Assembly: GCF_014269205.2 (NCBI RefSeq)
Contig: NZ_JABWRY020000001.1
Coordinates: 1,364,001-1,428,000, forward strand
Direction of reading: 5' to 3'
Length of the DNA: 64,000 nt
Source: Pseudomonas kermanshahensis
GTDB taxonomy: Bacteria > Pseudomonadota > Gammaproteobacteria > Pseudomonadales > Pseudomonadaceae
Below the pieces are notes generated by a model that saw nothing but the letters and a program-made list of their open reading frames with translations, searched no databases and was not told the DNA's origin. Positions 23,618 to 49,173 of this stretch are shown here, piece after piece (the first letter of the stretch is position 1; every line of letters starts with the position of its first letter). The position numbers and the translations under genes are program-made.

Positions 23618-23707
23618 TCCCCTGTGTACATCCGGCCGCCGAGTGCTGCCCGCCGACGTGCGCGGTGCAGCCGGCCCGACTTCACCAGACACTGGCAGGA
23701 ACACCCC

Positions 23708-26700: not shown

Positions 26701-29700
26701 GTTGCTCGAAGCCCTGCCCGAGGCGCGCGAGCAGGGCCTGTTCCAGGTCATGTTCAACCACCAGCAACGTGACCTTTCGGCGCTGCGCCGCTTGCCAGGT
26801 TTGCTTGCCGAAGAGTTGCCGTGGCACAGCCGAGAAGCCAAGTTCGACCTGCAGCTGCACAGTGAAGAGGACCATCAAGGCCGCCTGACCTTGGCCTTCG
26901 ACTATGCCGCCGAACTGTTCGAGGCCAGCACGGTAAAACGCCTGGCCGCCCACCTGTTGGCGTTGCTGGAGCAGGTTTGCGCCCGGCCGCAGCTGGCGCT
27001 GGGCGAGGTGCAGTTGCTCGATGAACAGCACCGCGCACAGCTGCTCGGCTGGGGCCAGGCACCGGCGGCGGCGCCCCAGCGCCTGCTGGTCGACCAGCTC
27101 AACGAGCAGGCCCGGCTGACCCCGCAGCGAACCGCGCTGGCCTGGCAGGGCGGCAGCCTGGACTATGCCGAGTTGCACCAGCAGGCCAACCGCCTGGCCC
27201 ATTACCTGCGTGACAAAGGCGTTGGCCCCGATACCTGCGTGGCCATCGCCGTCGAGCGTTCGCCGCAGCTGCTGGTTGGCCTGCTGGCCATCCTCAAGGC
27301 CGGCGGCGCCTACGTGCCGCTGGACGTGGACTACCCGGCCGAGCGCCTGGCCTACATGCTCGGCGACTGCAATGCCAGCCTGCTGCTGAGCCACAGCGGC
27401 CTGCTGGGCAAGCTGCCGCAGGTCGAAGGCGTCAGCGCCATCGCCCTCGACCAGTTGCACCTGGACAGCTGGCCTAGCCATGCTCCCGGCCTGCACCTGC
27501 ACGGCGACAACCTGGCCTATGTGATCTACACCTCGGGCTCCACTGGCCAGCCCAAGGGCGTGGGCAACACCCATGCGGCCCTGGCCGAACGCCTGCAGTG
27601 GATGCAGGCCACCTATGCGCTGAACGACAGCGACGTGCTGATGCAAAAAGCGCCCATCAGTTTCGACGTCTCGGTGTGGGAGTGCTTCTGGCCGCTGGTC
27701 ACCGGCTGCAAGTTGGTACTGGCAGGCCCTGGCGAGCATCGTGACCCGCAGCGCATCGCTGCGCTGGTGCAAGCGCATGGCGTGACCACGCTGCACTTCG
27801 TACCGCCGCTGTTGCAGGTGTTCGTGCAAGAGCCACAGGCCGCCGCCTGCACCAGCCTGCGCCGGTTGTTTTCCGGCGGCGAAGCGTTGTCGGCCAACCT
27901 GCGTGACCGTGTGCTGCAACTGCTGCCCCAGGTGCAACTGCACAACCGTTATGGCCCGACCGAAACCGCGATCAACGTCACCCACTGGCACTGCCAGGCC
28001 GAAGACGGCGAGCGCTCGCCGATCGGCCGCCCGTTGGGCAACGTGCTGTGCCGCGTGCTCGACGATGAACTGGAACTGACCGCCCCCGGTGTGCCGGGTG
28101 AGCTGTACCTGGGCGGCGCGGGGCTTGCCCGAGGTTACCTGGGGCGTCCGGGCCTGACGGCCGAGCGTTTCGTGCCCCAGGCCGACGGCGACGGCCAGCG
28201 CCTGTACCGCAGTGGCGACCGTGCCCGCTGGCAAGTCCAGCTGGAAGCGCTGGAATACCTGGGGCGCCTCGACCAGCAGGTGAAGGTGCGCGGCTTCCGC
28301 GTCGAACCCGAAGAAGTCCAGGCCTGCCTGTTGGCGCAAGCGGGTGTCGACCAGGCACTGGTGCTGATCCACAAGGACGCTGTGGGCGCGCAATTGGTCG
28401 GCTACTACAGCGGTGCGGCCGAGCCGGCTGCACTGCTGGCCGCCTTGGCCGAGCAACTGCCGGCGTACATGGTGCCGGCGCAGCTGATCCCGCTGGCACA
28501 CTTGCCATTGGGCCCAAGCGGCAAAGTCGATCGCAAGGCGTTGCCCGCCCCGGTGTGGCAACAACGCGAGCATGTCGAGCCGCAAAGTGCCGTGCAGCAG
28601 CAGGTCGCGGCGATCTGGCGTGAAGTGCTCAACCTGCCGCGTGTGGGCCTGCAGGACGACTTCTTTGCCCTGGGTGGCCACTCGCTACTTGCCACCCAGA
28701 TCGTCTCGCGGGCCCGTCAGGCGTGCGATGTCGAGCTGCCGCTGAAAGTGCTGTTCGACGCCAGCGAGCTGGGCGCGTTCTGTGCCGAGATCACGCGCCT
28801 GCGGGAGGCCGGCGCGCATAACCTGCAAGGCGAAATCCCCCGCGTCGACCGCCGCCAGGCCGTGCCGTTGTCGTACTCGCAACAGCGCATGTGGTTCCTC
28901 TGGCAGATGGAGCCTGACAGCCCCGCCTACAACGTCGGCGGCATGGCCCGCTTGCGTGGCACGCTGCACGTGGACGCATTCGAGCGGGCGCTGCAGGCGC
29001 TGATCGTGCGTCACGAAACCCTGCGCACCACGTTCCCCAGCATCGACGGCGTGGCGTACCAGTGCGTGGCCGAAGACAGCGGCGTGCACCTCGACTGGCA
29101 AGACTTCAGCACCTTGCCCGCCGAGGCCCGCCAGCAACGCCTGCAACAGCTCGCCGACGACCAGGCGCACCAGCCGTTCGACCTCGAGCGTGGCCCGCTG
29201 CTGCGCGCCTGCCTGGTCAAGGCCGAGGAACGTGAGCATTACTTCGTCCTGACCTTGCACCACATCGTCACGGAAGGCTGGGCCATGGACATCTTCGCCC
29301 GCGAGCTGGGCGAGCTGTACGAAGCCTTTGTCGATGATCGCGAGTCGCCACTGACGCCGCTGCCGGTGCAATACCTGGACTACAGCGTGTGGCAGCGGCA
29401 CTGGCTGGAAAGCGGCGAAGGCGCGCGGCAGCTGGCCTACTGGAAAGCCCGCCTGGGCGATGAGCACCCGGTCTTGGCATTGCCGTCCGATCGCCCGCGC
29501 CCAGCGGTGCAGAGCCACCGTGGCGAGTTGCACCGGTTCGAGCTCGACCCGGCGTTGGTGGCGCGCGTGCATGCGTTCAACAGCCAGCGCGGGCTGACCC
29601 TGTTCATGACCATGACGGCAACCCTGGCGGCCTTGCTGCACCGCTACAGCGGCCAGCGTGACCTGCGCATCGGCGCACCGGTGGCCAACCGCATCCGCCC

Positions 29701-32700
29701 GGAAAGCGAGGGGCTGATCGGCGCCTTCCTCAACACCCAGGTACTGCGCTGCGAACTGGACGGCCAGATGACCGCCGCCGAGCTGCTGGAGCAGATGCGC
29801 CAGGCCGCCATCGAAGGCCAGTCGCACCAGGACCTGCCATTCGACCAGTTGGTCGAAGCCCTGCAGCCACCGCGCAGCAGCGCCTATAACCCGCTGTTCC
29901 AAGTGATGTGCAACGTCCAGCGCTGGGCGTTCCAGCAAAGCCGTGAGCTGGTGGGCATGCAGGTCGACTACCTGGTCAACGACGCCAGCGCCACCAAGTT
30001 CGACCTGTACCTCGAAGTCACTGACCTCGATGGCCGCCTGGGCTGCTGCCTGACCTACAGCCGCGACCTGTTCGACGCGCCGCGCATTGCGCGCATGGCC
30101 GAGCACTGGCAGCAGTTGCTGATCGGCCTGCTGGACGACCCACAACAGCGCCTGTGCGAGCTGCCGATGCTGAGCCCGGGCGAGCAGCAAGTGCTGGTTG
30201 GGCAATTACAAGGCGAGCAGGATTTTGCCCTCGACCAGACCGTGCACGGCCTGTTTGCCGCCCAAGCTTCGCGCACACCCCAGGCCCCTGCGCTGACCTT
30301 CGCGGGCCAGCACCTGAGCTACGCCGAACTGGACCAGCAGGCCAACCGCCTGGCCCGCGCCCTGCGCGAGCGCGGTGTCGGCCCGCAGGTACGCGTCGGC
30401 CTGGCCCTGGAGCGTTCGCTGGAAATGGTCGTCGGCCTGCTGGCCATCCTCAAGGCGGGCGGTGCCTATGTGCCGCTCGACCCCGAGTACCCCCTCGACC
30501 GCTTGCGCTACATGATCGAAGACAGCCGCATCGGCCTGCTGCTCAGCCAGCGCGCGCTGCTGGAAACCCTTGGCGAACTGCCAGACGGCGTGGCCCGCTG
30601 GAGCCTGGAAGACGATACTGCAGGTTTGTCCGCCTTCAGCGATGCCCCGCTGGATAACCTGAACCTGCCGCAGCACCAGGCTTACCTGATCTACACCTCC
30701 GGCTCCACCGGCAAGCCCAAGGGCGTGGTGGTCAGCCATGGTGAAATCGCCATGCATTGCCAGGCCGTGATCGAGGCCTTCGGCATGCGCAGCGACGACT
30801 GCGAACTGCACTTCTACTCGATCAACTTCGATGCGGCCAGCGAACGCCTGCTGACCCCGCTGCTGTGTGGTGCCCGCGTGGTGATCCGTGCCCAAGGCCA
30901 GTGGGGCGCTGAAGAGATCTGCCAACTGGTGCGCGAGCAACAGGTGAGCATTCTTGGCTTCACCCCAAGCTATGGCAGCCAGTTGGCCCAGTACCTGGCC
31001 GGGCAGGGCGAGCAGTTGCCGGTGCGCCTGGTGATCACCGGCGGCGAGGCGCTGACCGGCGAGCACCTGCAGCGCATTCGCCAGGCGTTCACGCCGCAAC
31101 AGTTCTTCAACGCCTACGGCCCGACCGAAACCGTGGTCATGCCGCTGGCCTGCCTGGCGCCACCCACGCTGCCGGCCGACCTGGGCAGTGTGCCGATCGG
31201 CCATGTGATTGGCGCCCGCACTGCGTACATCCTCGATGAGGACCTGGCCTTGCTGCCACAAGGCGGCATCGGCGAGCTGTACATCGGCGGTGCCGGCCTG
31301 GCCCAGGGGTATCACGACCGCCCGGGGCTGAGTGCCGAGCGCTTCGTTGCCGACCCCTTCAGCACACAGGGCGGGCGCCTGTACCGCACCGGCGACCTGG
31401 TGCGCCTGGGCGCCGATGGTTTGGTCGAGTACGTTGGCCGTGCTGACCAGCAGGTGAAAATTCGCGGCTTCCGTATCGAATTGGGCGAAATCGAAAGCCG
31501 CCTGCAGGCGCATGCCGATGTCGACGAGGCGGTGGTCCTGGCCCTCGACCTGCCGGGCGGCAAACAACTGGTGGGTTACCTGGTGTGCAAGCAGGCCGGT
31601 GCCAACAGCGAGGCCCAGGCCGCGCTGCGCGACGCGGTCAAGGCCGATGCCCGCCAGCAACTGCCTGACTACATGGTGCCCGCGCACCTGGTGCTGCTCG
31701 ACAGCCTGCCGCTGATGGGCAACGGCAAGCTCGACCGCAAGGCGCTGCCGCTGCCGGACCTGGAGCAGGCGCACCAGCATTACCAGGCCCCAGGCAACGA
31801 AGTGGAAGCGCAGCTGGCGCAGATCTGGCGCGACGTGCTCAACGTGGCCCGCGTTGGCGTGCAGGACAACTTCTTCGAACTCGGTGGTGACTCGATCCTC
31901 TCGATTCAGGTGGTCAGCCGGGCCCGTCAGTTGGGCCTGCAGTTCACCCCGCGTGACCTGTTCCAGCACCAGACTATCCAGACCCTGGCCACGGTGGTCA
32001 GCCTGAGCGCCGCGCCAAGCGGTATCGAGCAGGGCCTGCGCGAGGGGCAAACCGGGCTGACGCCAATCCAGCACTGGTTCTTCGACAGCGAAGTGGCCCA
32101 GCCACAGCACTGGAACCAGGCCGTACTGTTGGCAGCGCGCCAGCCTCTGGACAGCGCGGCACTGGAGCAGGCCCTGGCTGCACTGGTGCAGCACCACGAC
32201 AGCCTGCGCCTGCGTTTCTGCCAGGCCAATGGCCGCTGGCAGGCCGAGTATGCCCAGCCTGCGCCTCAGCAACTGCTGTGGGCGGCCACGGTTGCCGACT
32301 TCGATGATTGCCAGGCGCTGTACACCGACCTGCAGCGCAGCCTCGACTTGGAGCAAGGCCCGCTGCTGCGCGCCTTGCTGGTAACAGACGGGCAGGGCAG
32401 CCAACGCCTGCTGCTGGCGATTCACCACCTGGTGGTTGATGGCGTGTCCTGGCGCGTGCTGCTCGAAGACTTGCAGGCGCTGTACCGTGGCCAGCCGTTG
32501 GCGGCCAAGACCCACACCCTGGGCGACTGGGCCGCACGCCTGGCCAGCTACGCCGGCAGCGACTCGCTGCGCGACGAGCTGGACTGGTGGCACGCCCAGC
32601 TCGGCACTGTACGCCACGAACTGCCGTGTGATCACCCGCAGGGTGGCAACCTGCACCGCCACGCCCGCACCCTGGCCATCGGCCTTGATGCCGAGCAGAC

Positions 32701-35700
32701 CCGCCAGTTGCTGCAACAGGCACCCGCGGCTTACCACACCCAGGTCAACGACCTGCTGCTGACAGCCCTGGCACGCGCCCTGTGCCGGTGGAGCGGTGAC
32801 AGCGAAGTGCTGGTACAGCTCGAAGGCCACGGCCGCGACGGGTTGTTCGAAGACATGGACCTGACCCGCAGCGTCGGCTGGTTCACCAACGCCTACCCGC
32901 TGAGCCTTTGCCCGGTGCTGGGTGATGACGATGCTGCGCGCGCCCGCTCGATCAAACGGGTCAAGGAGCAACTGCGTCAGGTGCCGCACAAAGGGCAGGG
33001 CTATGGCGTGCTGCGCTACCTGGCCGACGCGGCCGGGCGCGAGCGCATGGCCGCACTGCCGCAGGCCCGCATCACCTTCAACTACCTGGGGCAGTTCGAC
33101 CAGCAGTTTGACGCCGATGCGCTGTTCCAGCCGCTGGACGCACCGGCGGGCCTGGCCCATGACCTGGAGGCGCCGCTGCCCAACTGGCTGAGTGTCGACG
33201 GCCAGGTCTATGCCGGTGCCCTGCAATTGCGCTGGACCTACAGCACCGAGCGCTACGACGAGCAGACCATCGCCACCCTGGCCGAAGGCTACCGCCAAGA
33301 GTTGCTGGCGCTGGTCGGCCACTGCCTGGCCGACGGCAACGGCAGCTTCACGCCGTCCGACTTCCCCTTGGCGCACCTGACCCAGGAGCAGATCGACAAC
33401 TTGCCGGTCGCTGCCGTCGAGATCGACGATGTCTACCCGCTGACGCCGATGCAGGAAGGCATGCTGCTGCACACCCTGCTGGAGCCGGGCACCGGCATCT
33501 ACTACATGCAGGACCGCTACCGCATCAACAGCGCGCTAGACGCCGAACGCTTCGCCCAAGCTTGGCAGGCGGTGGTGGCGCGCCATGAGGCCCTGCGGGC
33601 GTCGTTCAGTTGGAACACCGGCGAGGCGATGCTGCAGATCATCCACAAGCCCGGCAAGACGGCAGTGGATTATCAAGACTGGCGCGGCCTCGACGACGGT
33701 GCCCAGGAAGCCCGCCTGCAAGCCCTGCACAAACAGGAGCGTGAGGCCGGTTTCGACCTGCTGCGTGAAGCGCCGTTCCACCTGCGCCTGGTGCGCGTCG
33801 CCGATGAACGCTACTGGTTCATGATGAGCAACCACCACATCCTGATCGATGCCTGGTGCCGCTCGTTGCTGATGAACGACTTCTTTGAGGTCTACCAGGC
33901 CCTTGGCGAAGGCCGCCCGGCCCAGTTGCCGGTGCCGCCACGCTACCGTGACTACATCGGCTGGCTGCAACGCCAGGACCTGAACGAAGCGCGCCAGTGG
34001 TGGCAGGCCAACCTGGCCGGGTTCGAGCGGGCCACGGCGATCCCCAGCGACCGCCCGTTGCGCCACGACCACGCCGGTGACGGCATGATCGTCGGCGACT
34101 GCTACACCCGCCTGGACGTCACTGACGGTGTTCGCTTGCGCGAACTGGCCCAGGCCCATCAGCTGACCATCAACACCTTCGCCCAGGCGGCCTGGGCCCT
34201 GGTGCTGGCGCGCTACAGCGGCGAGCGCGACGTGGCCTTTGGCGTCACCGTGGCCGGGCGCCCGGTGAGCATGCCGCAGATGCAGCGCACCGTTGGCCTG
34301 TTCATCAACAGCATCGCCTTGCGCGTGCAACTGCCCGCTGCCGGCGAGCGCTGCAGCGTACGCCAGTGGCTGCAAGGCGTGCTCGAACACAATATGGAAG
34401 TGCGCGAGTACGAGTACCTGCCGCTGGTGGCGATCCAGGAATGCAGCGAACTGCCCAAGGGCCAGCCGCTGTTCAACAGCCTGTTCGTGTTCGAGAACGC
34501 GCCGGTGGAAACCGCAGTGCTGGACCACGCCCAGCACCTCAACGCCAGCTCCGACTCGGGCCGCACCCACACCAACTTCCCGTTGACGGCGGTGTGCTAC
34601 CCGGGGGATGACCTGGGCCTGCACCTGTCGTTCGACCAACGTTACTTCGACACTTCGACCGTCGAACGCCTGCTGGCCGAGTTCAAGCGCCTGCTGTTGG
34701 CGCTGGTGCAGGGCTTCGAGGGCGAGGTAAGCGATTTGCCGCTGCTGGGTGCCGAAGAGCAACGCTTCCTGATTGAAGACTGCAACCGCACCGAGCACGC
34801 CTATGCGCTGGAACAGAGCTATGTCGAGCAGTTCGAGGCGCAGGTCGCCGCGCACCCAGAACGCACGGTGGCGCGTTGCCTGGACGCCTCCTTTGACTAC
34901 GCGGGCCTGAACCTTGCGGCCAACCGCCTGGGCCATGCCCTGATTGGCGCAGGCGTAACCGTCGATCAGCCGGTTGCGCTGTTGGCCGAGCGCGGTTTGC
35001 CATTGCTGGGGATGATCGTCGGCAGCTTCAAGGCCGGTGCCGGCTACCTGCCGCTGGACCCCGGCCTGCCCGCCGCGCGCCTGCAGCGCATCGTCGCGCT
35101 CAGCCGCACACCGGTGCTGGTATGCAGCGCGGCCTGTGCCGAGCAGGGGCGGCAGTTGCTGGACGCACTGGAGGGTGTGGCGCGGCCGCAATTGTTGGTG
35201 TGGGAAGACATCCAGGCCAGCAACATCGCCAGCCACAACCCGGGTATTTATAGTGGGCCCGACAACCTCGCGTATGTCATCTACACCTCGGGCTCCACCG
35301 GTTTGCCCAAAGGGGTGATGGTCGAGCAGCGCGGCATGCTCAACAACCAGCTCAGCAAGGTGCCTTACCTGGCCTTGAACGAGCAGGACGTGATTGCCCA
35401 GACCGCTTCGCAGAGCTTCGATATCTCGGTCTGGCAGTTCCTGGCCGCGCCGTTGTTCGGCGCCAGGCTGGAGATCGTGCCCAATGCCATCGCCCATGAT
35501 CCGCAAGGCCTGCTGGCGCATGTGCAGGCTACCGGCATCACCGTGCTGGAAAGCGTGCCGTCGCTGATCCAGGGCATGCTGGCCAACGATCACCAGGCCC
35601 TCAGCGGCCTGCGCTGGATGCTGCCGACCGGCGAGGCGATGCCGCCAGAGCTGGCCGCGCAATGGCTGCAGCGTTACCCAGGCATTGGCCTGGTCAATGC

Positions 35701-36661
35701 CTACGGCCCGGCGGAGTGCTCGGACGACGTGGCGTTCTTCCGTGTCGATGTCGAGTCCACCCGCGGCAGTTACCTGCCGATTGGCACCCCGACCGACAAC
35801 AACCGCCTATACCTGTTCGGCGAGGACCAGGTCCTGGTGCCGTTGGGCGCGGTTGGTGAGCTGTGTGTTGCCGGTACCGGCGTGGGCCGTGGCTATGTCG
35901 GCGACCCCGTGCGTACCGCCCTGGCCTTCATCCCGCACCCCCATGGCGCGCCGGGTGAACGCCTGTACCGCACCGGCGACCTGGCGCGCCAGCGCCCGGA
36001 CGGAGTACTGGAGTATGTGGGCCGCATCGATCACCAGGTGAAGATTCGCGGGTATCGCATCGAACTGGGTGAGATCGAAGCGCGCCTGCACGAACAGGTC
36101 GAAATCCGCGATGCTGCGGTGGGCGTGCAGGAGGGCGTCAACGGCAAGCACCTGGTCGGCTACCTGGTGGCCCATCAGGGCGTAACCCCTGATGCGGCGT
36201 TGCTCGAACAAATCAAGCAGCGCCTGCGCGCGGCATTGCCCGAGTACATGGTGCCGCTGCACTGGGGTTGGTTCGACAGCCTGCCGCACAACGCCAACGG
36301 CAAGCTCGACCGCAAGGCACTGCCGGCCATCGACATCGGCAGCCAGCACAGCCAGGCCTACCTGGCGCCGCGCAACGAGCTGGAAACGGTGTTGGCCGGT
36401 ATCTGGGCCGATGTGCTCAAGACCGAACGGGTGGGGGTACACGACAACTTCTTTGAGTTGGGCGGGCATTCGCTGCTGGCCACGCAGATCGCTTCGCGGG
36501 TGCAGAAGCAGTTGCAGTTGGATGTGCCGCTGCGGGCGATGTTCGAGTGCAGCACGGTGGAGGAACTGGCGGTGTATGTGGAGGGGTTGCAGGGGCGTGT
36601 GCTGGATGACGACAAGGTTGACCGGCTGAGTGACCTGATGGCGGAGCTTGAGGGGCTGTAG
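23708..36661 (+). CDS. pvdL: Pyoverdine chromophore nonribosomal peptide synthetase PvdL
   Basis: Starter NRPS (4317 aa) building acyl-Glu-D-Tyr-Dab, the chromophore precursor. Reading the domains in order gives: fatty-acyl-AMP ligase (1-580; [11 protein letters not shown] near 171); carrier with LLGGNS near 614; condensation (HHIVADGW near 802); adenylation ([11 protein letters not shown] near 1273); carrier LGGHS near 1658; condensation (HHIVTEGW near 1852); adenylation near 2328; carrier LGGDS near 2725; epimerase ([10 protein letters not shown] near 2906); condensation (NHHILIDAW near 3375); adenylation near 3858; carrier near 4249. There is no thioesterase, so the chain passes to another NRPS not in this window. 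The start at 23708 has CAGGAA upstream. P. aeruginosa PvdL has the same architecture. The substrate calls come from that architecture. Confidence 0.96.
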
Positions 36662-41131: not shown

Positions 41132-42450
41132 GCCTGCGGGTACGCCTGAGCCTGATCCTGGGCAGCGCCTTCGTGATTATCTGGGTACTGGCTGCCGCGT
41201 GGATGCTGCGCGACTTGCGCCAGCAGATGATGTTCTCCCTCGACCAGCGCCTCGTGGCTTCGGCACGCATGGTGGCCGGGTTGATCGACCAGTTGCCGCA
41301 GCCGCTGGCGGCCAAGGGCGAGGACGCGCATTTTTCCGCCGACCAGTTCAGCGTGCCGGATGGCATGGCGTGCCAGGTAAGCTCGCTGCGCGGCGAGATC
41401 CTGGCCAGCAACCACAAGCATGATGGCGCCATGGATGACCAGCGCAGCGGCTTCCGTGACCAGACCATCGACGGCGCGTTGTGGCGTACGTTCACCTACA
41501 ACCACGGCGATGTGCGCATCACCACCGCCGACCGCCACATGGAGCGCGAGGCCCTCAACCAGTCGATCCTGCTGGCCGCCTCGGCGCCGGTGCTGATGGC
41601 ATTGCTCGGCAGCCTCGGCCTGTTGTGGATCGGCTTGGGCAAGGGCCTGGAGCCGCTCAACCGGATGCGCGACGCCTTGCGTCGAAGGCGCGCCGACAGC
41701 GTCGAGCCCCTGCAGGTGTCGGGCCTGCCCAGCGAGCTGCAGCCGCTGTTGGACACGCAGAACCAGTTGTTCCTGCGGATCGCCCAGACCATCGAGCGCG
41801 AACGGCGCCTGACCGATGACGCCGCCCACGAGCTGCGCAGCCCGCTGACGGCGATCAAGACTCACCTGCAGGTAGCGCGGATGACCGACGGCGCGGTGCG
41901 TGAACAGGCATTGGAGCATGCCGAGCAAGGTACCGACCGCATGCACCGCACGCTTGAGCAACTGCTGATGCTGGCGCGTGTGGAAGGCAGCCTGTCGTTC
42001 GAGGATGGCGTGCAGTGCAGCGCCGAGCAGGTCGCCCGCCAGGCGGTGCAGGATGCCGGCGGTGGCGATAACCGTCGCATCGTATTGCGCCTGCCCGAGG
42101 AGGCCACGCAAATCTACCTGGGCATGCCCGCGCCGCTGGCAGTTGCGGCCTTGCGCAACCTGCTGGACAACGCCCTGCGCCATGGTGGCGAAAGCGCGGT
42201 GGAGCTGGAGGTGCAGATGACTGACGGCCAGGTGGGGTTCATGGTGCGCGACCACGGGCCCGGCATTGCCGAAGCGGACCTGCAGCACCTGACCGAGCGT
42301 TTCTGGCGCAACGGCCAGAGTGGCGGGTGTGGCTTGGGCTTGGCGATCGTCCAGGCAATCGTCCAGCGCTGTGCCGGCAGCCTGCGTTTCGACAGCCGTA
42401 GCGATGGCTTGCGGGTGCTGTTGCAGGTACCGGCGCGTTCGGAGCGTTGA
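41128..42450 (+). CDS. dsbS: Sensor histidine kinase (DsbS-like)
   Basis: Membrane kinase (440 aa). Helices at about 8-27 and 146-170 flank a periplasmic sensor that contains C82, H96, H98 (NHKHDG), H126 and H137, possible metal or thiol ligands. A HAMP region precedes the phospho-acceptor H234 (DAAHELRSPL). The ATPase domain shows NLLDNALRHGG, DHGPGI and GCGLGLAI. Coupled to the response regulator by an ATGA overlap, and followed by a strong hairpin. Confidence 0.9.
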   Translation: MSLRVRLSLILGSAFVIIWVLAAAWMLRDLRQQMMFSLDQRLVASARMVAGLIDQLPQPLAAKGEDAHFSADQFSVPDGMACQVSSLRGEILASNHKHDGAMDDQRSGFRDQTIDGALWRTFTYNHGDVRITTADRHMEREALNQSILLAASAPVLMALLGSLGLLWIGLGKGLEPLNRMRDALRRRRADSVEPLQVSGLPSELQPLLDTQNQLFLRIAQTIERERRLTDDAAHELRSPLTAIKTHLQVARMTDGAVREQALEHAEQGTDRMHRTLEQLLMLARVEGSLSFEDGVQCSAEQVARQAVQDAGGGDNRRIVLRLPEEATQIYLGMPAPLAVAALRNLLDNALRHGGESAVELEVQMTDGQVGFMVRDHGPGIAEADLQHLTERFWRNGQSGGCGLGLAIVQAIVQRCAGSLRFDSRSDGLRVLLQVPARSER

Positions 42451-42457
42451 TCTGCTG

Positions 42458-42487
42458 GCCTGGGCCGGCCTATTGGCCGGCCCAGGC
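42458..42487 (+). terminator. Hairpin after the dsbRS genes
   Basis: A perfect 13-bp stem (GCCTGGGCCGGCC at 42458-42470, complement at 42475-42487) with a TATT loop. The T tract is absent, so termination may be partial. It insulates the kinase gene from the pvdH promoter. Confidence 0.65.
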
Positions 42488-42510
42488 TGTAAAAATCCCA
42501 CAACAACCGC

Positions 42511-42534
42511 TAAATCCTCCTTGCGCTGAAGCGT
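42511..42534 (+). promoter_or_regulatory. PvdS-type IS box upstream of pvdH
   Basis: TAAAT (42511-42515), 16 bases, CGT (42532-42534), in the context GCTAAATCC. About 80 bp before the pvdH ATG. Confidence 0.88.
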
Positions 42535-42614
42535 TCTCCAAGCGACAACTACCCGCACACATCTGCTTACAGGGGCGTGGCGGGGCACTTTCGCTTGCTT
42601 GCGAGGATCTACCC

Positions 42615-44006
42615 ATGTCGACCGCTTCCAGCTTTGCCCAGGTCTTGCCGGCCAGTGCGCCGCAACCCCTGTACGCGTTCACCGATTCGCCCTTGCTGCA
42701 ACGCCAGCAGCAACAGGAATCCAACGCCCGCAGCTACCCGCGGCGCATCCCGTTGGCGCTCAAGCGCGCCCGTGGCATCCATGTCGAAGATGTCGAAGGC
42801 CGTCAGTTCATCGACTGCCTCGCCGGTGCCGGCACCTTGGCCCTGGGCCATAACCACCCGGTGGTGATCGAGGCGATCCAGCGTGTACTGGCCGACGAAC
42901 TGCCGCTGCACACCCTCGACCTGACCACGCCGGTCAAGGACCGCTTTGTTCAGGATCTGTTCGGCGTGCTGCCCGAGGCGCTGCGCCGGGAAGCCAAGGT
43001 CCAGTTCTGCGGCCCGACCGGGACCGATGCCGTTGAGGCGGCGCTGAAACTGGTGCGCGGCGCCACGGGGCGCAGCACGGTGCTGGCCTTCCAAGGTGCC
43101 TACCATGGCATGAGCCAAGGTGCGCTGAGCCTGATGGGCAGCCACGGGCCCAAGCAGCCGTTGGGTGCCTTATTGGGCAACGGTGTGCAGTTCATGCCGT
43201 ACCCGTACGACTACCGTTGCCCGTTCGGCCTGGGTGGCGAAGCGGGGGTGAAGGCTAACCTGCATTACCTGGAAAACCTGCTGCTCGACCCTGAAAGCGG
43301 TGTGCCGCTGCCGGCTGCAGTGATTCTAGAGGTGGTGCAGGGCGAAGGCGGGGTGATCCCGGCCGATATCGAGTGGCTCAAGGGCGTGCGGCGGATCACC
43401 GAGCAAGCGGGGGTGGCGCTGATCGTCGACGAGATCCAGAGCGGCTTCGCCCGCACCGGGCGGATGTTCGCCTTCGAGCATGCCGGTATCGTGCCGGACG
43501 TGGTGACCTTGTCCAAGGCAATTGGCGGCAGCCTGCCGCTGGCAGTGGTGGTGTACCGCGACTGGCTGGACACCTGGAAGCCGGGCGCCCATGCCGGCAC
43601 CTTCCGTGGCAACCAGATGGCTATGGCCGCAGGTTCTGCAGTGATTAATTACCTGGTCGAACATCGCCTGGCCGAGCATGCCGAGGCCATGGGCCAGCGC
43701 CTGCGCCAGCATTTGCTTCACCTGCAGCGGGATTACCCGCAACTGGGTGATATCCGTGGGCGTGGGCTGATGCTTGGGGTGGAGCTGGTCGACCCGCAAG
43801 GTCAGCGCGATGCCCTAGGTCACCCTGTGGCCAACCGTGAGCTTGCGCCGAAGGTGCAGCGTGAGTGCCTCAAGCGTGGCCTGATCCTGGAGCTGGGTGG
43901 GCGCCATGGCGCGGTGGTGCGCTTCCTGCCGCCGTTGATCATCAGTGGCGAGCAGATCGACGACGTGGCGCAGCGGTTTGCCGAAGCCCTCAGGGCAGCT
44001 GTCTGA
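42615..44006 (+). CDS. pvdH: L-2,4-diaminobutyrate:2-oxoglutarate aminotransferase PvdH
   Basis: Class-III PLP aminotransferase (463 aa) making L-2,4-diaminobutyrate from aspartate semialdehyde for the Dab residue of the pyoverdine chromophore. The PLP lysine is K301 (TLSKAIGG). GPTGTDAVEAALK, GAYHGMSQGAL and VDEIQSGFARTG are family motifs. The start at 42615 is backed by GAGG eight bases upstream and an IS box. An ORF reaching 56 codons further crosses the promoter and is rejected. Confidence 0.95.
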   Translation: MSTASSFAQVLPASAPQPLYAFTDSPLLQRQQQQESNARSYPRRIPLALKRARGIHVEDVEGRQFIDCLAGAGTLALGHNHPVVIEAIQRVLADELPLHTLDLTTPVKDRFVQDLFGVLPEALRREAKVQFCGPTGTDAVEAALKLVRGATGRSTVLAFQGAYHGMSQGALSLMGSHGPKQPLGALLGNGVQFMPYPYDYRCPFGLGGEAGVKANLHYLENLLLDPESGVPLPAAVILEVVQGEGGVIPADIEWLKGVRRITEQAGVALIVDEIQSGFARTGRMFAFEHAGIVPDVVTLSKAIGGSLPLAVVVYRDWLDTWKPGAHAGTFRGNQMAMAAGSAVINYLVEHRLAEHAEAMGQRLRQHLLHLQRDYPQLGDIRGRGLMLGVELVDPQGQRDALGHPVANRELAPKVQRECLKRGLILELGGRHGAVVRFLPPLIISGEQIDDVAQRFAEALRAAV

Positions 44007-44059: not shown

Positions 44060-44166
44060 TAACTGCGCAGGCTCAGACCTTTTGAGGGGGGCATGCGGGA
44101 GTCCTCTTGCAAGCGGTTTCTCAAGGAACGAGCCGACGCCACTGCAAATTAACCCCGCACAGGCGG

Positions 44167-45288
44167 CTACCAGCCGCGCCCGGAATTCACCCAGAAGTTC
44201 ACCGACAACGACGTGGACACCGACTGCACCTGGTGGAACCACCCTTCAGGCAGGAACAACAGGTCACCGGCCTGCAGCACCACGCGCAGGAACGGCACGT
44301 CACGCGCGGCTGGGAAGCGCTGGTAGTCCGGTGCGTCGGGGTTGAAATCGCAGCCGTCCAGGCCGCCCTTGGGGCTGGTCGACCAGGTGCCCAGTGCCGC
44401 ACGGTGGTGGGGCGCAGCCAGGATGAACGACTTCTGCCCCCACACCTGCGCGAACAGGTTGTCGGTGTCGTCGCGGTGCAGGGGCGTCAGGGTGCCCTTT
44501 GGGCCGATCCAGATGCGTGGCGAGATGAAGCGCTGGCGCTCGAAGTAGTCCGGAAAGCGGATCAGGGTCAGGAGTTTTTCCGGGACGATGTTGTTGCCCA
44601 TGTAGGCCGGCGTTTCGCCAGGCTTGGCCGGGGTGTCCAGCGAGGCGATGAAATCGGCCATGGAGGTCGAGCGGAAGTCGCGGTCGGTAGAGAAGGTTTT
44701 CTTGACGTAGTCACCGTGCCGGGTAATGCCTTGCAGTTCGGCGAAATGCTCAAGTGACGCTTCGCGGCCCATGGTGAACAGTGGCCAGTCCTGCAGGGCA
44801 TCGCTGAGCACCACCGGTATGCCGTGCGCCAGGTAGTCGCTTTGAAACCGTTGCAGAGGCATGTCTGCCCGGGCAATGCGCTGCACCTCGCGCTGCACCG
44901 GCAGCGCGGCCGAGACCCGCTCGCTGAGGCGTGGCGGCGTTGGGTAGCGCTGGTTCATCGCCACCTTGGTCGCTGCGGCGCCTTTGCGGGCGTTGTTGAT
45001 GATTTGCGGCAGCAAGGTGGCCAGGCCCATGTTGCCGGTGATCTTCAGGCGTGCGCTGGCGAACAGCTCCTCGACGTTGGCCGTGCCGCCCATGATGCCG
45101 AGGAAGTCGCGCTCGGCCACCTCGATGGTGACATCCGGGGTGCTGTGCCGGCCTGCGCCGGTGCGGCTGGTGTCGCGCACTTCCGACCAGAAGGCACGGT
45201 CCGGGCCGAAGACGAACTGGAACACGCCTTCGATGCCGACGGCATGGGCGTTGGCGAACAGTTTGCTGAGGATGCTCTGAAGGTCCAC
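44167..45288 (-). CDS. SCP2-JmjC two-domain protein, putative Fe(II)/2-oxoglutarate oxygenase
   Basis: Predicted cytoplasmic protein (373 aa). Residues about 15-105 resemble an SCP2 sterol/lipid-carrier domain (PDVTIEVAERDFLGI, LKITGNMGLA). Residues about 145-373 form a cupin_8/JmjC domain with the iron triad H271-x-D273 and H352 (PLHRDDTDN, GWFHQV) and K286 as a possible 2-oxoglutarate contact. An IS box lies 37 bp upstream, so it should be switched on by PvdS. A lipid-binding domain joined to an oxygenase suits an acylated pyoverdine precursor as substrate, perhaps for side-chain hydroxylation. This is inference and no function is established. Confidence 0.85.
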   Translation of the reverse strand: MDLQSILSKLFANAHAVGIEGVFQFVFGPDRAFWSEVRDTSRTGAGRHSTPDVTIEVAERDFLGIMGGTANVEELFASARLKITGNMGLATLLPQIINNARKGAAATKVAMNQRYPTPPRLSERVSAALPVQREVQRIARADMPLQRFQSDYLAHGIPVVLSDALQDWPLFTMGREASLEHFAELQGITRHGDYVKKTFSTDRDFRSTSMADFIASLDTPAKPGETPAYMGNNIVPEKLLTLIRFPDYFERQRFISPRIWIGPKGTLTPLHRDDTDNLFAQVWGQKSFILAAPHHRAALGTWSTSPKGGLDGCDFNPDAPDYQRFPAARDVPFLRVVLQAGDLLFLPEGWFHQVQSVSTSLSVNFWVNSGRGW

Positions 45289-45324: not shown

Positions 45325-45348
45325 ACGAGTGTGTCCGCCATCGATTTA
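45325..45348 (-). promoter_or_regulatory. PvdS-type IS box upstream of the SCP2-JmjC gene
   Basis: On the minus strand TAAAT (45344-45348), 16 bases, CGT (45325-45327), in context GCTAAATC. The expected leader is about 20 nt. Confidence 0.83.
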
Positions 45349-45362
45349 GCGGCGCTTACAGC

Positions 45363-45386
45363 TAATTTTCGGTGCGCCTTCTACGT
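45363..45386 (+). promoter_or_regulatory. PvdS-type IS box upstream of the HSL hydrolase (TAATT variant)
   Basis: TAATT (45363-45367), 16 bases, CGT (45384-45386). It stands 14 bp from the oppositely oriented box of the oxygenase gene, so the two promoters are back to back. Confidence 0.75.
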
Positions 45387-45428: not shown

Positions 45429-46391
45429 ATGGCATTGCACCCTGATCTGGCGGGATTTCTGGAGCTGGTCGAATTTGGCCGGTTGACGGGCAGAAGCCTG
45501 CCCATGCACGCGATGGACGTGGCCCAGGCCCGGGCCGAGTTCGAGGGCAGTTCGCAAGTGCTCGACCCAAGCCCGCCCGGCAGCGTGGCGGTGAGCGAGC
45601 TGCAGGTCCCGGCGCGCGATGGCGCCAGCCTGCCAGCGCGGCTGTACCGCGCGGGTGACGCAGGCGATGCCTTGCAGCCGGTGATCTTCTACCTGCACGG
45701 TGGTGGCTATGTGGTAGGCAGCCTCGACTCGCATGACTCGGTGTGCCGCCGCCTGGCAGCCATGGGTGAGTTCGCGGTGCTGGCGCCGGACTACCGATTG
45801 GCGCCGGAGCAGCAGTTTCCGGTAGCGCTGCACGATGTGCTGGATGCCGCCAACTGGCTGGCCGAGCAGGCTGGGGCGTTGGGCTTGGACAACCGTCGGG
45901 TGGTTGTGGCTGGGGACAGCGTCGGTGCCAGCCTGGCCGCCGTGCTGGCCATCACGGCCGTCGAGCAGCCCGAAGCGCTGGCGTTCAAGCCGCTGGCGCA
46001 GTTGCTGTTCTACCCGGTGACAGACATTTCCTGCCAGCGCAACTCTCACCGCGAGCATGCCGAGGGGTACCTGCTGGAAACGCCTACCCTGGAGTGGTTC
46101 TACCAGCACTATGCGCCGCAGGCGGAGCAGCGTCTGGACTGGCGTGTGTCGCCCTTGCTGTCGACGGTGCGTGAGTCATTGGCGCCGGCGTACCTGTTCG
46201 TGGCCGAGTACGATCCGTTGCATGACGAAGGGCTTGCCTACCGTGACTGGCTGGTGGCGGGGGGTACCGAGGTGACGTTTGCCCGGGTCGAGGGGCTGAC
46301 CCATGACTTCTTGCGCATGTCCGGGATCGTGGGGCAGGTGGGGGAGATTTATCAGGATGTGGGGGGCTGGCTGCAGAAGGTTGGGGGTTAG
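45429..46391 (+). CDS. HSL-family alpha/beta hydrolase (esterase/lipase)
   Basis: Hormone-sensitive-lipase-type hydrolase (320 aa). The oxyanion motif HGGG is at 90-93, nucleophile S164 in GDSVGAS, acid D262 (AEYDPLHDEG) and base H292 (LTHDF). No signal peptide, so it is likely cytoplasmic. AAGGA lies seven bases before the chosen ATG. A 19-codon upstream extension enters the IS box and is rejected. The substrate is unknown. Co-regulation with pyoverdine genes is suggested by its IS box. Confidence 0.9.
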   Translation: MALHPDLAGFLELVEFGRLTGRSLPMHAMDVAQARAEFEGSSQVLDPSPPGSVAVSELQVPARDGASLPARLYRAGDAGDALQPVIFYLHGGGYVVGSLDSHDSVCRRLAAMGEFAVLAPDYRLAPEQQFPVALHDVLDAANWLAEQAGALGLDNRRVVVAGDSVGASLAAVLAITAVEQPEALAFKPLAQLLFYPVTDISCQRNSHREHAEGYLLETPTLEWFYQHYAPQAEQRLDWRVSPLLSTVRESLAPAYLFVAEYDPLHDEGLAYRDWLVAGGTEVTFARVEGLTHDFLRMSGIVGQVGEIYQDVGGWLQKVGG

Positions 46392-46520: not shown

Positions 46521-47810
46521 TCACGAACTACGCACCCGCCGCCCCAGCACATCGACCAAGCGGTCGATCTCGGCCTCGGTGTTCAGCAGCCCAGGCGCGG
46601 TACGCACCACCGGCCCAGCATCACGTGACACGGCATCGACGACAATGCGCTGGCTGTTGAGATACCCGGCCACGTCATCCGCATCCTGGCCCTTGACCCT
46701 GAAAAAGGTAAACCCAGCCGAGTACTGGGCACTGCGCGGCGTCACCAGTTCGACCGCTTCAACCGCCTCAAGACGCTGCTTGAGGTAGTCGTTGAGCCCA
46801 TGAATACGCGCCTGGATATTCGCCTTGCCCTGCTGCAGGTGCAGCTCGAAGGCCTTGCCCAGCGCCCAGCGGTGCTCAAAGGCATGGTAGCCGCCTGGGG
46901 TCATGATGGTGGCGAAGTCTTCATTCTCGGAAAACGTGGCAATGGTCGGGTTCAGCTGCTTGAGCTCGGTGGAGGCCGCGCAGATGATCCCGGTGCCACG
47001 TGGCCCGAACATCCACTTGTGGGTGCCGGCGATGAAGTAGTCGCAGTTCAGGTCGGCAAAGCGCATGTCCTCGACGCCAAAGCCATGTACCCCGTCGATC
47101 ACGTAAATAATGTGGTCCTTCTCGTCGCGCTGGCGATTGACCTCGCGCACCAGCGCGCCAATCTCACCCACCGGCAGCTTCACACCGCTGCCGGAATGGA
47201 CCCAGGTCATGCCCAGTACCCGCGTCTTGGCGCTGATGGCCGCAGCCAGGGTGCCGAGTACCTGGTCGGTGCTGACCTGTGACGGGTTCTCGAACAGGCG
47301 CAAGCGGCGCACCGGCGTGCCATCGCGTGCCGTGCGGAAACTCATCGTCTGGCGCGCCGCCGAATGCTCGTGCACGGTGGTGAGAATTTCCTGCCCAGGT
47401 GCAAGCTTCAGGCCGCCATAGATCAGGCCCAGGCCTTCCGTGGTGCTGCCGGTCAGGGCGATTTGTCGGGGGTTTACCTCAAGGTAGCGACCGGCCCATT
47501 CACGCACTGCGGCCTCTTGCTTCCACTCCGCCTGGCTGTCCCAGTCAACCCTGCGCGCCGGGTGGCGGTCGAAGCTCGCACTCAGGGCCTCGATGGCCTC
47601 GCGCACCGGCTTTGGGTGTGACGTGATCAGGAAGTTGGCGAAGTGCGCGTAGGCGGGGTCCAGGTCGAACAGGCCGCGAAAAGCGGCCCAGGCGTCGTTG
47701 CCAGCGGGTGGCAATGGCGCGGCCTGAGCGCCCGGCAACAACTGGCTGGCCAGGGGCAGGGCAGCGGCCAGCAGGCTTGCCTGCTTGAGGAAGGTACGGC
47801 GGTCGTTCAT
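46521..47810 (-). CDS. pvdN: Periplasmic PLP enzyme PvdN
   Basis: Tat-exported class-V aminotransferase-fold enzyme (429 aa) that remodels the N-terminal glutamate of pyoverdine to the succinamide form. The Tat signal RRTFLKQ (4-10) leads into a hydrophobic stretch. PLP residues include D239, H242 and Schiff-base K265 (AGTHKWMFGPRG). It is 16 bp downstream of pvdM in the same operon. pvdO, which joins pvdM-pvdN in P. aeruginosa, is absent here. Confidence 0.95.
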   Translation of the reverse strand: MNDRRTFLKQASLLAAALPLASQLLPGAQAAPLPPAGNDAWAAFRGLFDLDPAYAHFANFLITSHPKPVREAIEALSASFDRHPARRVDWDSQAEWKQEAAVREWAGRYLEVNPRQIALTGSTTEGLGLIYGGLKLAPGQEILTTVHEHSAARQTMSFRTARDGTPVRRLRLFENPSQVSTDQVLGTLAAAISAKTRVLGMTWVHSGSGVKLPVGEIGALVREVNRQRDEKDHIIYVIDGVHGFGVEDMRFADLNCDYFIAGTHKWMFGPRGTGIICAASTELKQLNPTIATFSENEDFATIMTPGGYHAFEHRWALGKAFELHLQQGKANIQARIHGLNDYLKQRLEAVEAVELVTPRSAQYSAGFTFFRVKGQDADDVAGYLNSQRIVVDAVSRDAGPVVRTAPGLLNTEAEIDRLVDVLGRRVRSS

Positions 47811-47826: not shown

Positions 47827-49173
47827 TTATCGGGACGAAGTGGTGGCGGGTTGCGCGGCGTGCTGCACCTGCTCCCATACCCGCAGGAAGTTGCCGCCCC
47901 AGAGCTTGGCGATATCGGCCTCGGAATAGCCGCGGGTGATCAGTTCGGCGGTGACGTTGCGCGCTTCGCTTGCGTCGTGCCAACCGTCGATGCCGCCGCC
48001 TTCATTGAAGTCCGAGCTCAGCCCCACATGGTCGATGCCGACCTTGCGCACCGTGTAGTCGATGGCGTCGCCGAAGTCCTTGAGCGTGGCCGGTGGCTCT
48101 TCGTCGAGGATGCCGTACAACGCGTTGGCGTACTGGCCCACCTTCTGCTCCGGCCAGCCGGCGATGACCGGGTCACCCGGCATCAGCGCGTAGTTGAGGT
48201 TGGCCAGCGGCGGCAAGTCGTAGCGGGCGCGCAGGGCGTTGAGTTTGTCCTGGGTTTTCACGCTCAGTGGCTTTAGGTAGGTGGAGAAGGCCACCAGTTG
48301 AATCACGCCGCCGCTGTCCTTGATCAGTTGCATTTCCTTGTCGGACAGGTTGCGGGCAATGTCGACCATGGCGCGTGGCGCAGAGTGCGACGCCACCACC
48401 GGCGCGCGGCTGAGGCTGACCGCCTGGGCCAGTGCCTTGCTCGACATCTGCGACACATCGATGATCACACCCAGGTCGTTAAGCCGCTGTACGGCGCGTT
48501 TGCCAACCGGCGAAAGGCCGTCCAAAGCATCGGCGGTGTCATTGAAGAACGGCAACGGGCGCGAAGAGTCGGCCCAGCTGTTGTTGCCCACGTAGCTGAA
48601 GCCGAACATGCGCACGCCGCGGGCGGCCCAGCGGTCGAGCTGGTCGATATCGTCGCCCAGGGCATAGGCATTGAGCATGCTGAGGAACACCGCGAACTTG
48701 CCTTCGCCGTGCAGGCGTCGCATGTCTTGCGGGGTGTAGGCGATACCGACCTGTTCGGGGAAGTCGCGGACCATGGCGTCGATAGCGTTGTAGCGCACCT
48801 CCTGAGTGTGGCGTGCGGCTTCGACGAAGCCTGCGGTCGGCCGGTGCGGGCCATCGTCGCCGGTCCACGATTCGGGCCAGGCGAAGATCGTCAGCGCGGC
48901 GCCAGACAGCCGCCCGCGGGCGGCCTTGGCCAGGTCGAAGCGGCCATTGCCGTCCTTGTCGGCCTCGCTGCCCTCAGTGCCGAACGTCAGCGGCAGGGTG
49001 ACATGGCTGTCGAACGAGATGATGCGTTCCTGCAGGTCGTTGGCCTGGCGCACCACCTCTCTGGAGTAGCCGGCCGGCGTGGTGAAGTAGTGCCAGGCGG
49101 CAAATCCGGCACCTGCGGTCACGGCCGCGGCCAGGCTGATAAACAGGGCTTTTTTCCAGCGTGGAGTCGTCAT
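47827..49173 (-). CDS. pvdM: Periplasmic dipeptidase-fold protein PvdM
   Basis: Membrane-anchored or secreted protein (448 aa) of the renal dipeptidase (M19) fold. Residues 8-28 form a signal/anchor. In P. fluorescens PvdM is reported as necessary for ferribactin oxidation by PvdP rather than for peptide hydrolysis. The family zinc ligands look partly lost: H57-x-T replaces H-x-D, the bridging Glu region reads SMLNAYAL, and DVSQMS replaces D-x-x-H. ASHS and the later Asp (LSSDFN) remain. An IS box lies upstream, divergent from pvdP. Confidence 0.93.
   Translation of the reverse strand: MTTPRWKKALFISLAAAVTAGAGFAAWHYFTTPAGYSREVVRQANDLQERIISFDSHVTLPLTFGTEGSEADKDGNGRFDLAKAARGRLSGAALTIFAWPESWTGDDGPHRPTAGFVEAARHTQEVRYNAIDAMVRDFPEQVGIAYTPQDMRRLHGEGKFAVFLSMLNAYALGDDIDQLDRWAARGVRMFGFSYVGNNSWADSSRPLPFFNDTADALDGLSPVGKRAVQRLNDLGVIIDVSQMSSKALAQAVSLSRAPVVASHSAPRAMVDIARNLSDKEMQLIKDSGGVIQLVAFSTYLKPLSVKTQDKLNALRARYDLPPLANLNYALMPGDPVIAGWPEQKVGQYANALYGILDEEPPATLKDFGDAIDYTVRKVGIDHVGLSSDFNEGGGIDGWHDASEARNVTAELITRGYSEADIAKLWGGNFLRVWEQVQHAAQPATTSSR

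What the first reader, a model, noticed from the sequence alone, without database searches (positions are those of the whole stretch)
45325..45386. Back-to-back PvdS promoters link an SCP2-JmjC oxygenase and an HSL hydrolase to pyoverdine
Two IS boxes (TAAAT-N16-CGT leftward, TAATT-N16-CGT rightward) lie 14 bp apart between two genes with no assigned siderophore role. Distances to both ATGs match those of real pvd promoters in this window. The left gene joins a lipid-carrier-like SCP2 domain to a JmjC Fe(II)/2OG oxygenase domain with intact H271/D273/H352. Because PvdL primes the peptide with a fatty acid, an enzyme that holds an acyl chain and hydroxylates a residue is an attractive idea. The hydrolase might act on the same acylated intermediate. 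These functions are speculation, but the co-regulation signal is direct.
Basis: partly seen in the sequence, partly recalled or inferred. Interest (0 to 1): 0.82.

Follow-up and report, generated by a model that had tools for sequence, protein, structure and literature searches.

The report
Pyoverdine side-chain hydroxylase candidate and partner hydrolase
Two overlooked genes in a soil Pseudomonas sit under paired iron-starvation switches beside the genes for its iron-scavenging pigment; one is a strong candidate for the unknown enzyme that makes the pigment's malic-acid side chain, and the other goes with the ring that ends its peptide.

Summary
Two iron-starvation (PvdS) boxes, 14 bp apart, face an SCP2-JmjC gene (44167-45288, -) and an HSL-type hydrolase gene (45429-46391, +) between pvdH and pvdN. 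Six of the genome's 15 CTAAWT-N16-CGT sites are in this window.

The SCP2-JmjC gene has the box 31-91 nt before it in 77 of 80 named relatives (random positions 0.8%); in 62 of 80 it is divergent from an NRPS. Orthologues occur only in genomes with pvdM (59 of 59, in 270 genomes). Their peptides differ and may lack Asp and His, so the target should lie in the invariant acyl-Glu-Tyr-Dab part. The unexplained C-hydroxylation there is malic acid/malamide, whose enzyme two reviews call unknown. The enzyme activity is inferred.

The hydrolase is not tied to the acyl end: it usually follows the terminal NRPS gene and goes with a terminal hydroxyornithine module (24 of 24 loci read, against 2 of 18 without it).

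The parts
45325..45350 (-). PvdS (iron-starvation) box of the SCP2-JmjC gene, GCTAAAT-N16-CGT
   Evidence: same box 31-91 nt before the gene in 77 of 80 relatives
45361..45386 (+). PvdS (iron-starvation) box of the HSL hydrolase gene, GCTAATT-N16-CGT
   Evidence: a divergent box lies within 300 nt in 59 of 80 relatives, where an NRPS rather than the hydrolase usually lies beyond
44167..45288 (-). SCP2-JmjC oxygenase gene (373 aa, GTG start): proposed side-chain hydroxylase of acyl-ferribactin
45001..45156 (-). part of the SCP2 (lipid-carrier) domain matched by Pfam PF02036, residues 45-96
   Evidence: solved SCP2/nsLTP and fatty-acid-binding relatives
44191..44850 (-). Cupin_8/JmjC Fe(II)/2-oxoglutarate domain, residues 147-366, with H271, D273, H352
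   Evidence: nearest solved folds JMJD5, TYW5, JMJD7, FIH
45429..46391 (+). HSL-type alpha/beta hydrolase gene (320 aa): goes with a C-terminal hydroxyornithine module; triad S164, D262, H292
44128..44153 (-). lone PvdS box 3' of the SCP2-JmjC gene: probable relic promoter of a deleted siderophore-interacting (SIP) reductase gene
42447..44006 (+). pvdH (diaminobutyrate transaminase) ORF; the true start lies after its PvdS box at 42509-42534
46521..47810 (-). pvdN (makes the succinamide side chain); proposed later enzyme acting on the hydroxylated Glu
   Evidence: NF051467 above its cut-off
47827..49173 (-). pvdM
   Evidence: no NCBIfam match; named from its place beside pvdN and pvdP (recall) and its spread across the genus
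23624..36661 (+). pvdL ORF (starts acyl-Glu-Tyr-Dab), behind a PvdS box at 23592-23617
   Evidence: named from its size, adenylation codes and place (recall)

Best explanation
The SCP2-JmjC protein is an iron-stress-induced Fe(II)/2-oxoglutarate hydroxylase of the pyoverdine pathway. It works in the cytoplasm (no signal peptide is visible by eye). Its SCP2 domain holds the myristoyl chain of the PvdL product while the JmjC domain hydroxylates the neighbouring Glu residue. After export and deacylation, PvdN would turn unhydroxylated Glu into succinamide and hydroxy-Glu into malamide, which hydrolyses to malic acid. The divergent HSL hydrolase serves the other end of the same molecule: it helps release, deacylate or cyclise the C-terminal N-hydroxyornithine (cOHOrn). 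Shown: the two boxes, their conservation, the restriction to pvdM-positive genomes, the intact catalytic residues, and the link of the hydrolase to a terminal OHOrn module. Inferred: transcription from the boxes, the substrate, the lipid-holding role, the order of steps, and both enzyme activities.
For: PvdS box before the gene in 77 of 80 named loci, 652 of 80000 random positions. Orthologue in 42 of 199 genomes, all 42 pvdM-positive (138 of 199 are; chance 2e-8 ignoring kinship); second set 17 of 71, all pvdM-positive (59 of 71 are). In 62 of 80 loci an NRPS lies divergently 115-2856 nt upstream. Adenylation codes of 8 genomes with the gene show unrelated peptides; G019 and G125 have no Asp or His module, so OHAsp/OHHis is not the common target. 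Reviews say the malamide enzyme is unknown (PMC6206403; PMC9569983). P. fulva NBRC 16637 (= L009) has the intact gene; P. fulva pyoverdine has no OHAsp or OHHis but a malamide form, and for strain 16639 the B1 ion is 373.11 against 357.12 while the Y'' ions listed for both isoforms are unchanged (PMC12195549). The GB-1 siderotype makes malamide (PMC4019867); G289, one of 2 of 398 genomes with a GB-1 NRPS primer and with the same 8-module code, carries the gene at 92%. Nearest solved folds are protein or tRNA hydroxylases. HSL: terminal OHOrn in 24 of 24 hsl+ loci read, 2 of 18 hsl- loci read, p = 9e-10.
Against: 11 of 13 strains in that mass table have a +16 pair, so 3 of 3 is weak statistics. 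The two strains without one (NBRC 100650 and P. parafulva NBRC 16636) were not tested for the gene. Four of 42 genomes with the gene (G026, G149, G155, G181) lack PvdN, so they cannot make malamide by this route. The other genome with the GB-1 primer, G143, has only scraps of the gene. In passages of PMC8888394, isolates with WCS358-like and B10-like peptides, types that go with the gene here (G000, G098), are reported with succinic acid and succinamide; malic acid was found only in the introduction, and the gene content of those isolates is unknown. The 2018 review notes that hydroxy-Glu was never found. Association tests are not corrected for relatedness.
Confidence: 0.6

Rival explanations
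1. The SCP2-JmjC protein makes beta-hydroxy-Asp or beta-hydroxy-His in the peptide, like the TauD-type siderophore hydroxylases.
For: Several genomes with the gene have Asp modules, and it often lies beside the peptide NRPS.
Against: G019 and G125 have no Asp or His module. P. fulva carries the gene but its Asp is not hydroxylated. GB-1 has a SyrP-like Asp hydroxylase gene for that job. P. brenneri L044 carries a TauD gene on the other side of the same promoter region.
Confidence: 0.04
2. It hydroxylates another part of the acylated N-terminus: the fatty acid itself, or a position that leads to the azotobactin-type chromophore rather than to malamide.
For: SCP2 suggests a lipidated substrate. 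The two malamide makers read here (GB-1 siderotype, P. fulva) also make azotobactin forms, and a homologue at 67% identity is labelled Azotobacter vinelandii. Changes to the fatty acid would vanish on deacylation.
Against: I know no chemical route from hydroxylation to the azotobactin ring. The extra oxygen in P. fulva remains in the mature molecule, so fatty-acid hydroxylation cannot explain it.
Confidence: 0.15
3. It hydroxylates a protein (ribosomal protein, NRPS or receptor), as JMJD5 and FIH do, as part of the iron-stress response.
For: The nearest solved structures are protein and tRNA hydroxylases.
Against: It was found only in pvdM-positive genomes (59 of 59), in about a fifth of the genomes searched (42 of 199, 17 of 71), and mostly beside NRPS or other pyoverdine genes; a general protein target would not predict this.
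Confidence: 0.12
4. Hydroxylation happens on the finished succinamide in the periplasm, as the 2018 review thought most likely, by another enzyme; the SCP2-JmjC gene does something else.
For: No hydroxy-Glu intermediate has been found.
Against: The papers read here name no periplasmic candidate. The SCP2-JmjC protein has no signal peptide visible by eye.
Confidence: 0.09

Closest known systems
Cupin_8/JmjC hydroxylases JMJD5 (KDM8), JMJD7, TYW5, FIH
   Same: Fold and HxD...H facial triad; aligned by profile and by predicted structure.
   Different: They act on proteins or tRNA (recall and entry titles); the matches of the solved ones cover only the catalytic half, and SCP2 matches come from separate proteins.
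TauD-type Fe(II)/2OG hydroxylases of siderophores (SyrP-like OHAsp/OHHis enzymes; function recalled)
   Same: Chemistry class and pyoverdine setting.
   Different: Different family (PF02668, not Cupin_8/SCP2) and target: beta-carbon of Asp/His in the peptide against the acylated Glu proposed here.
PvdN and PtaA, periplasmic side-chain enzymes
   Same: Both modify the Glu-derived side chain.
   Different: PLP enzymes working after export; neither adds the hydroxyl that malamide needs.
Family IV (HSL) esterases such as Est8, EH1AB1, Est2
   Same: The right-hand gene is a clear member.
   Different: Those are named as general esterases; this branch mostly sits at the end of pyoverdine NRPS operons and goes with terminal OHOrn.

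Membership tests
PvdS (iron-starvation) promoter | TAAAT or TAATT, 16-bp spacer, CGT, close upstream of the gene | tested here: met
PvdS (iron-starvation) promoter | iron- and PvdS-dependent transcription | not testable with these tools
   needs expression data
JmjC / Cupin_8 Fe(II)/2OG oxygenase | Cupin_8 profile match and HxD...H triad | tested here: met
   (E 2e-37, 129.9 bits against a cut-off of 27.4), invariant in 32 of 32
JmjC / Cupin_8 Fe(II)/2OG oxygenase | 2OG-dependent hydroxylation activity | not testable with these tools
   needs assay
SCP2 lipid-carrier domain | PF02036 match above the curated cut-off | tested here: met
   35.3 bits against 21.3; matches to solved SCP2/nsLTP
SCP2 lipid-carrier domain | binding of an acyl chain | not testable with these tools
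   needs binding assay
TauD-type siderophore beta-hydroxylase | PF02668 (TauD) domain | tested here: not met
   no TauD match at E up to 0.001 for the SCP2-JmjC protein
Pyoverdine malamide-side-chain enzyme (no family yet) | present in malamide producers, absent from non-producers | tested here: inconclusive
   3 of 3 strains with genome and masses have gene and +16 pair, but 11 of 13 strains in the table have such a pair and the two without were not checked for the gene
HSL / family IV esterase | HGGG and GDSxG motifs with Asp and His of the triad | tested here: met
   H90-GGG, G162-D-S-x-G166, D262, H292 invariant in 23 of 23

The most novel reading that the evidence does not exclude
A new kind of siderophore tailoring enzyme: an SCP2-JmjC fusion that grips the fatty-acid anchor of a lipopeptide precursor and hydroxylates the residue next to it in the cytoplasm, before export. 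It would explain malic acid and malamide pyoverdines across Pseudomonas, and possibly feed the azotobactin chromophore. Its divergent partner, an HSL hydrolase, would be the enzyme that closes the C-terminal cyclo-hydroxyornithine, acting as the stand-alone release enzyme in lineages whose NRPS lacks a thioesterase domain.
Probability: 0.4. Interest if true: 0.86.

Novelty: new variant of a known kind. Interest (0 to 1): 0.74.

Why it matters
Pyoverdines have been studied for decades, yet two reviews read in passages here (2018 and 2022) say the enzyme for the malic/malamide side chain is unknown. This finding names one gene, gives its promoter and distribution, and makes the question answerable with a single deletion and a mass spectrum. 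The domain pairing also suggests how cells might modify a lipidated peptide beside its anchor. The hydrolase link offers a test of how the C-terminal hydroxyornithine ring forms, and a marker for predicting it from genomes, where one genome-mining study says its pipeline cannot distinguish the hydroxyornithine derivatives (PMC11444679, passages).

Tried and rejected
Hydroxylation of Asp or His by the SCP2-JmjC protein: rejected, since genomes with the gene may have neither module and P. fulva has unmodified Asp.

Hydrolase on the acylated intermediate: not supported.

Strict dependence on PvdN: tested and not found. 38 of 42 genomes with the gene have pvdN; 15 of the 138 pvdM-positive genomes lack it, so 4 of 42 is about what chance gives (two genomes with only distant matches, G037 and G103, were counted as lacking it).

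Hydrolase as the only release enzyme: not general. 20 of 24 hsl+ NRPSs read end in a thioesterase-type motif (confirmed by Pfam in the 2 tested); 4 end in a condensation/epimerisation-type domain without one (Pfam in all 4).

A. vinelandii and the azotobactin link: only one labelled homologue; left as a lead. P. taiwanensis DSM 21245 carries a 69% relative with none of the tested pyoverdine genes in its 6-kb flanks; its published pyoverdine structure is in a figure I could not read.

Not in print, as far as searched: pyoverdine with JmjC (9 papers, none on this by title and abstract start), cupin with PvdS (1 unrelated), sterol carrier (none), malamide (2 reviews), malic acid with ferribactin and succinamide, cOHOrn with hydrolase or thioesterase (57 papers, 15 listed). 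The library lacks most subscription papers.

Rows dropped before counts: 4 of 22 hsl- loci (L165, L173, L177, L181) and 3 hsl+ loci (L143, L147, L155) where the terminal NRPS could not be read, plus L161, whose genome was counted from another stretch. For hsl- loci L176, L179, L183, L121 and L125 the last module was read from an NRPS on the other strand, so its place in pyoverdine is uncertain. Two hsl- loci with OHOrn-like codes (L171, L175) were counted against the link. Two hsl+ codes aligned incompletely (L152, L154). The 80 loci are the best 80 of 86. In one search, 18 genomes with weaker matches (E above 1e-100: other JmjC proteins, or scraps in G143 and G153) were not counted as having the gene; 3 of the 42 counted (G034, G080, G105) have a match split across frames. 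The second genome set (71) was chosen by size, 5.5-6.3 Mb, from those listed.

After the filing check I recounted the divergent NRPS loci (62 of 80) and the PvdN counts, tested NRPS ends with Pfam, added the backwards control, and narrowed the SBW25-like comparison from five genomes to three.

Full report
Setting. The window lies in a Pseudomonas of the P. putida group; its SCP2-JmjC protein is 96% identical to that of P. capeferrum WCS358. It holds pvdH, pvdN and pvdP (named by NCBIfam) and genes placed here as pvdL, pvdM and opmQ-pvdT-pvdR from size, position and recall. The SCP2-JmjC gene (44167-45288, minus) and the HSL hydrolase gene (45429-46391, plus) lie between pvdH and pvdN.

Promoters. 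Both boxes are exact. CTAAWT-N16-CGT has 6 matches in the window against 0.20 expected, and 15 in the whole genome, of which 6 are in this window and one at 4298060 lies just upstream of the peptide NRPS; the backwards control has 20, so clustering, not total number, is the signal. Among 80 named relatives of the SCP2-JmjC protein (the best 80 of 86), 77 have TAAWT-N16-CGT ending 31-91 nt before the gene, median 37; 652 of 80000 random positions in the same loci do. The misses are L012, L067 and L078. A divergent box within 300 nt is present in 59 of 80.

What lies across the divergent promoter. In 62 of 80 loci it is an NRPS gene on the other strand, starting 115-2856 nt away, in some loci behind a type II thioesterase gene. 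The hydrolase is there in L002-L008, in the window, and in L161, L184 and L185. So the promoter pair is wider than the gene pair, and the hydrolase looks like a later occupant.

Distribution. In 199 genomes of the genus the SCP2-JmjC orthologue (E below 1e-100) is in 42, three of them with a match split across frames (G034, G080, G105); G143 and G153 keep only scraps. PvdM, used as a pyoverdine marker, is in 138; all 42 are among them (chance 2e-8 if genomes were independent; lists checked). In a second set of 71 genomes, chosen by size, it is in 17, all pvdM-positive (59 of 71). All 11 genomes whose PvdM is at least 85% identical to the window's carry it. Of 115 relatives from 45 genera, 13 genomes of this genus and none of the other 44 genera had a match at 1e-20. 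One protein-database homologue is labelled Azotobacter vinelandii.

The protein. The SCP2 and Cupin_8/JmjC domains score above their cut-offs. The triad is invariant in 32 of 32 aligned orthologues, as are long stretches elsewhere, which fits a constant substrate. By sequence and predicted fold the catalytic half is nearest to JMJD5, TYW5, JMJD7 and FIH; by sequence the N-terminal half is nearest to SCP2 and fatty-acid-binding proteins. I see no signal peptide (by eye).

Which residue? I read adenylation codes of eight genomes with the gene, using a recalled GrsA fragment as ruler. G289 gives Asp-Lys-Asp-Ser-Ala/Gly-Thr-Lys-OHOrn, the GB-1 peptide. G000, the window's genome, gives Asp-Lys-Asp-Ser-Thr-Ala-X-Ser-OHOrn, close to WCS358 as listed in PMC4219678 (passages). 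G019 gives Ser-OHOrn-Ala-Gly-Thr-Ala-OHOrn and G125 Ala-OHOrn-Gly-Thr-Thr-Gln-Gly-Ser-OHOrn; neither has Asp or His, and the even module spacing leaves no gap. G091 was read only in part. The only residue seen in all eight is OHOrn. What all pyoverdines share is acyl-Glu-Tyr-Dab.

The open question it fits. The 2018 review (PMC6206403, passages) says nothing is known about how malamide and malate forms arise, that an unknown enzyme acts on succinamide or possibly Glu, and that PAO1 and A506 do not make them. A 2022 review (PMC9569983, passages) says the biosynthesis remains unknown. PvdN turns Glu into succinamide, and the fatty acid sits on the amino group of that first residue. A hydroxylase with a lipid-carrier domain suits that residue. 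This step is inference.

Chemistry that can be matched to genomes. PMC12195549 (whole text read) gives masses for 13 strains. P. fulva pyoverdine is Asp-Ser-Ser-AcOHOrn-Lys-Lys-cOHOrn, without OHAsp or OHHis, with a 1220.55 form beside 1204.56. In the MS/MS tables (strain 16639) the B1 ion is 373.11 against 357.12, while the Y''2, Y''6 and Y''7 ions agree, so the extra oxygen is in the chromophore/side-chain unit. NBRC 16637 is L009, with an intact gene and box. NBRC 14671 is L011 and lists 1342.58, 1358.58, 1359.58 and 1374.59, that is +16.00 and +16.01 steps. NBRC 14164, inferred to be G217 from its 6,156,701-base chromosome, carries the gene at 91% and lists 1319.50, 1336.52, 1337.51 and 1352.52, which I read as succinimide, succinamide, succinic acid and +16.00. 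That side-chain reading is mine for these two strains. GB-1 and its siderotype make malamide or malic acid (PMC4019867, passages); computed masses agree (1250.53 against 1250.57), and the siderotype's NRPS code and primer occur in G289, which carries the gene at 92%. GB-1 itself was not available.

What speaks against it. Eleven of 13 strains in the table have a +16 pair, so three matches prove little by themselves. The two without, NBRC 100650 (recalled to be KT2440) and P. parafulva NBRC 16636, could not be checked for the gene. Four of 42 genomes with the gene lack PvdN. The second genome with the GB-1 primer, G143, has only scraps of the gene. Isolates with WCS358-like and B10-like peptides are reported with succinic forms in PMC8888394 (passages), though their genomes are unknown here. 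On the other side, three genomes without the gene (G031, G040, G099) have the tail OHOrn-Lys-OHOrn-Ser of the SBW25/ATCC 13525 peptide, and SBW25 is reported with succinic or ketoglutaric side chains (PMC2235872, passages); these are siderotype comparisons, not the same strains.

The hydrolase. A homologue (1e-60) is in 84 of 199 genomes, 81 of them pvdM-positive. In 22 of the 24 hsl+ loci where the terminal NRPS was read it follows that NRPS on the same strand; in G000 and G289 it lies elsewhere. The last adenylation code is OHOrn-like in 24 of 24, and in 2 of 18 hsl- loci (p = 9e-10, not corrected for kinship). In four hsl+ loci (L123, L149, L150, L152) the NRPS ends in a condensation/epimerisation-type domain with no thioesterase, which makes the hydrolase the obvious release candidate there; elsewhere a thioesterase is also present, so its step could instead be removal of an N-acetyl group before ring closure (the 2022 review mentions acetylation as a supposed step). 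The triad S164, D262, H292 is invariant in 23 of 23. In the window's clade the gene is away from the NRPS and has its own PvdS box.

Verdict. The boxes and the association of both genes with the pyoverdine system are firm. The SCP2-JmjC protein is the best candidate I found for the missing malamide enzyme (about 0.6). The hydrolase belongs with the C-terminal hydroxyornithine (about 0.75), not with the acyl end.

Noticed in passing
window 44128-44153 (-); L003, L009, L011, L012, L069, L008, L161, L184: A lone PvdS box sits just 3' of the SCP2-JmjC gene with no gene behind it. In L003, L009, L011, L012 and L069 an ORF of 318-322 aa follows such a box; it is a siderophore-interacting FAD reductase (SIP) in the three tested (L009, L012, and L161 from the genome of L003). 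In L008 that ORF is cut to 74 aa, and in G217 (L184) the box lies in a short gap as in the window: probably a relic promoter of a deleted gene.
   Followed up: partly
G034, G080, G105, G143, G153: The SCP2-JmjC gene looks broken in some genomes: matches split across frames in three, scraps in two others. G143 also carries the exact GB-1 NRPS primer sequence.
   Followed up: no
L128, L129, L156, L157 (G149, G181, G026, G155): Genomes with the SCP2-JmjC gene but without pvdN; in G026 and G155 pvdM is followed directly by a pvdO-like ORF (by eye). Their side chains would be informative.
   Followed up: partly
L123, L149, L150, L152: Terminal pyoverdine NRPS ends in a condensation/epimerisation-type domain with no thioesterase domain, with the hydrolase gene following.
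   Followed up: partly
G000:C1:1068037, 1548967, 1707983, 1833201, 1902670, 2935529; C2:88151; C3:116565: Eight further CTAAWT-N16-CGT matches outside the window and the NRPS promoter; possible other PvdS targets or chance (the backwards control has 20 genome-wide).
   Followed up: no
P0113 (protein database): A 67% identical SCP2-JmjC homologue labelled Azotobacter vinelandii, a species known for azotobactin (azotobactin also named).
   Followed up: no
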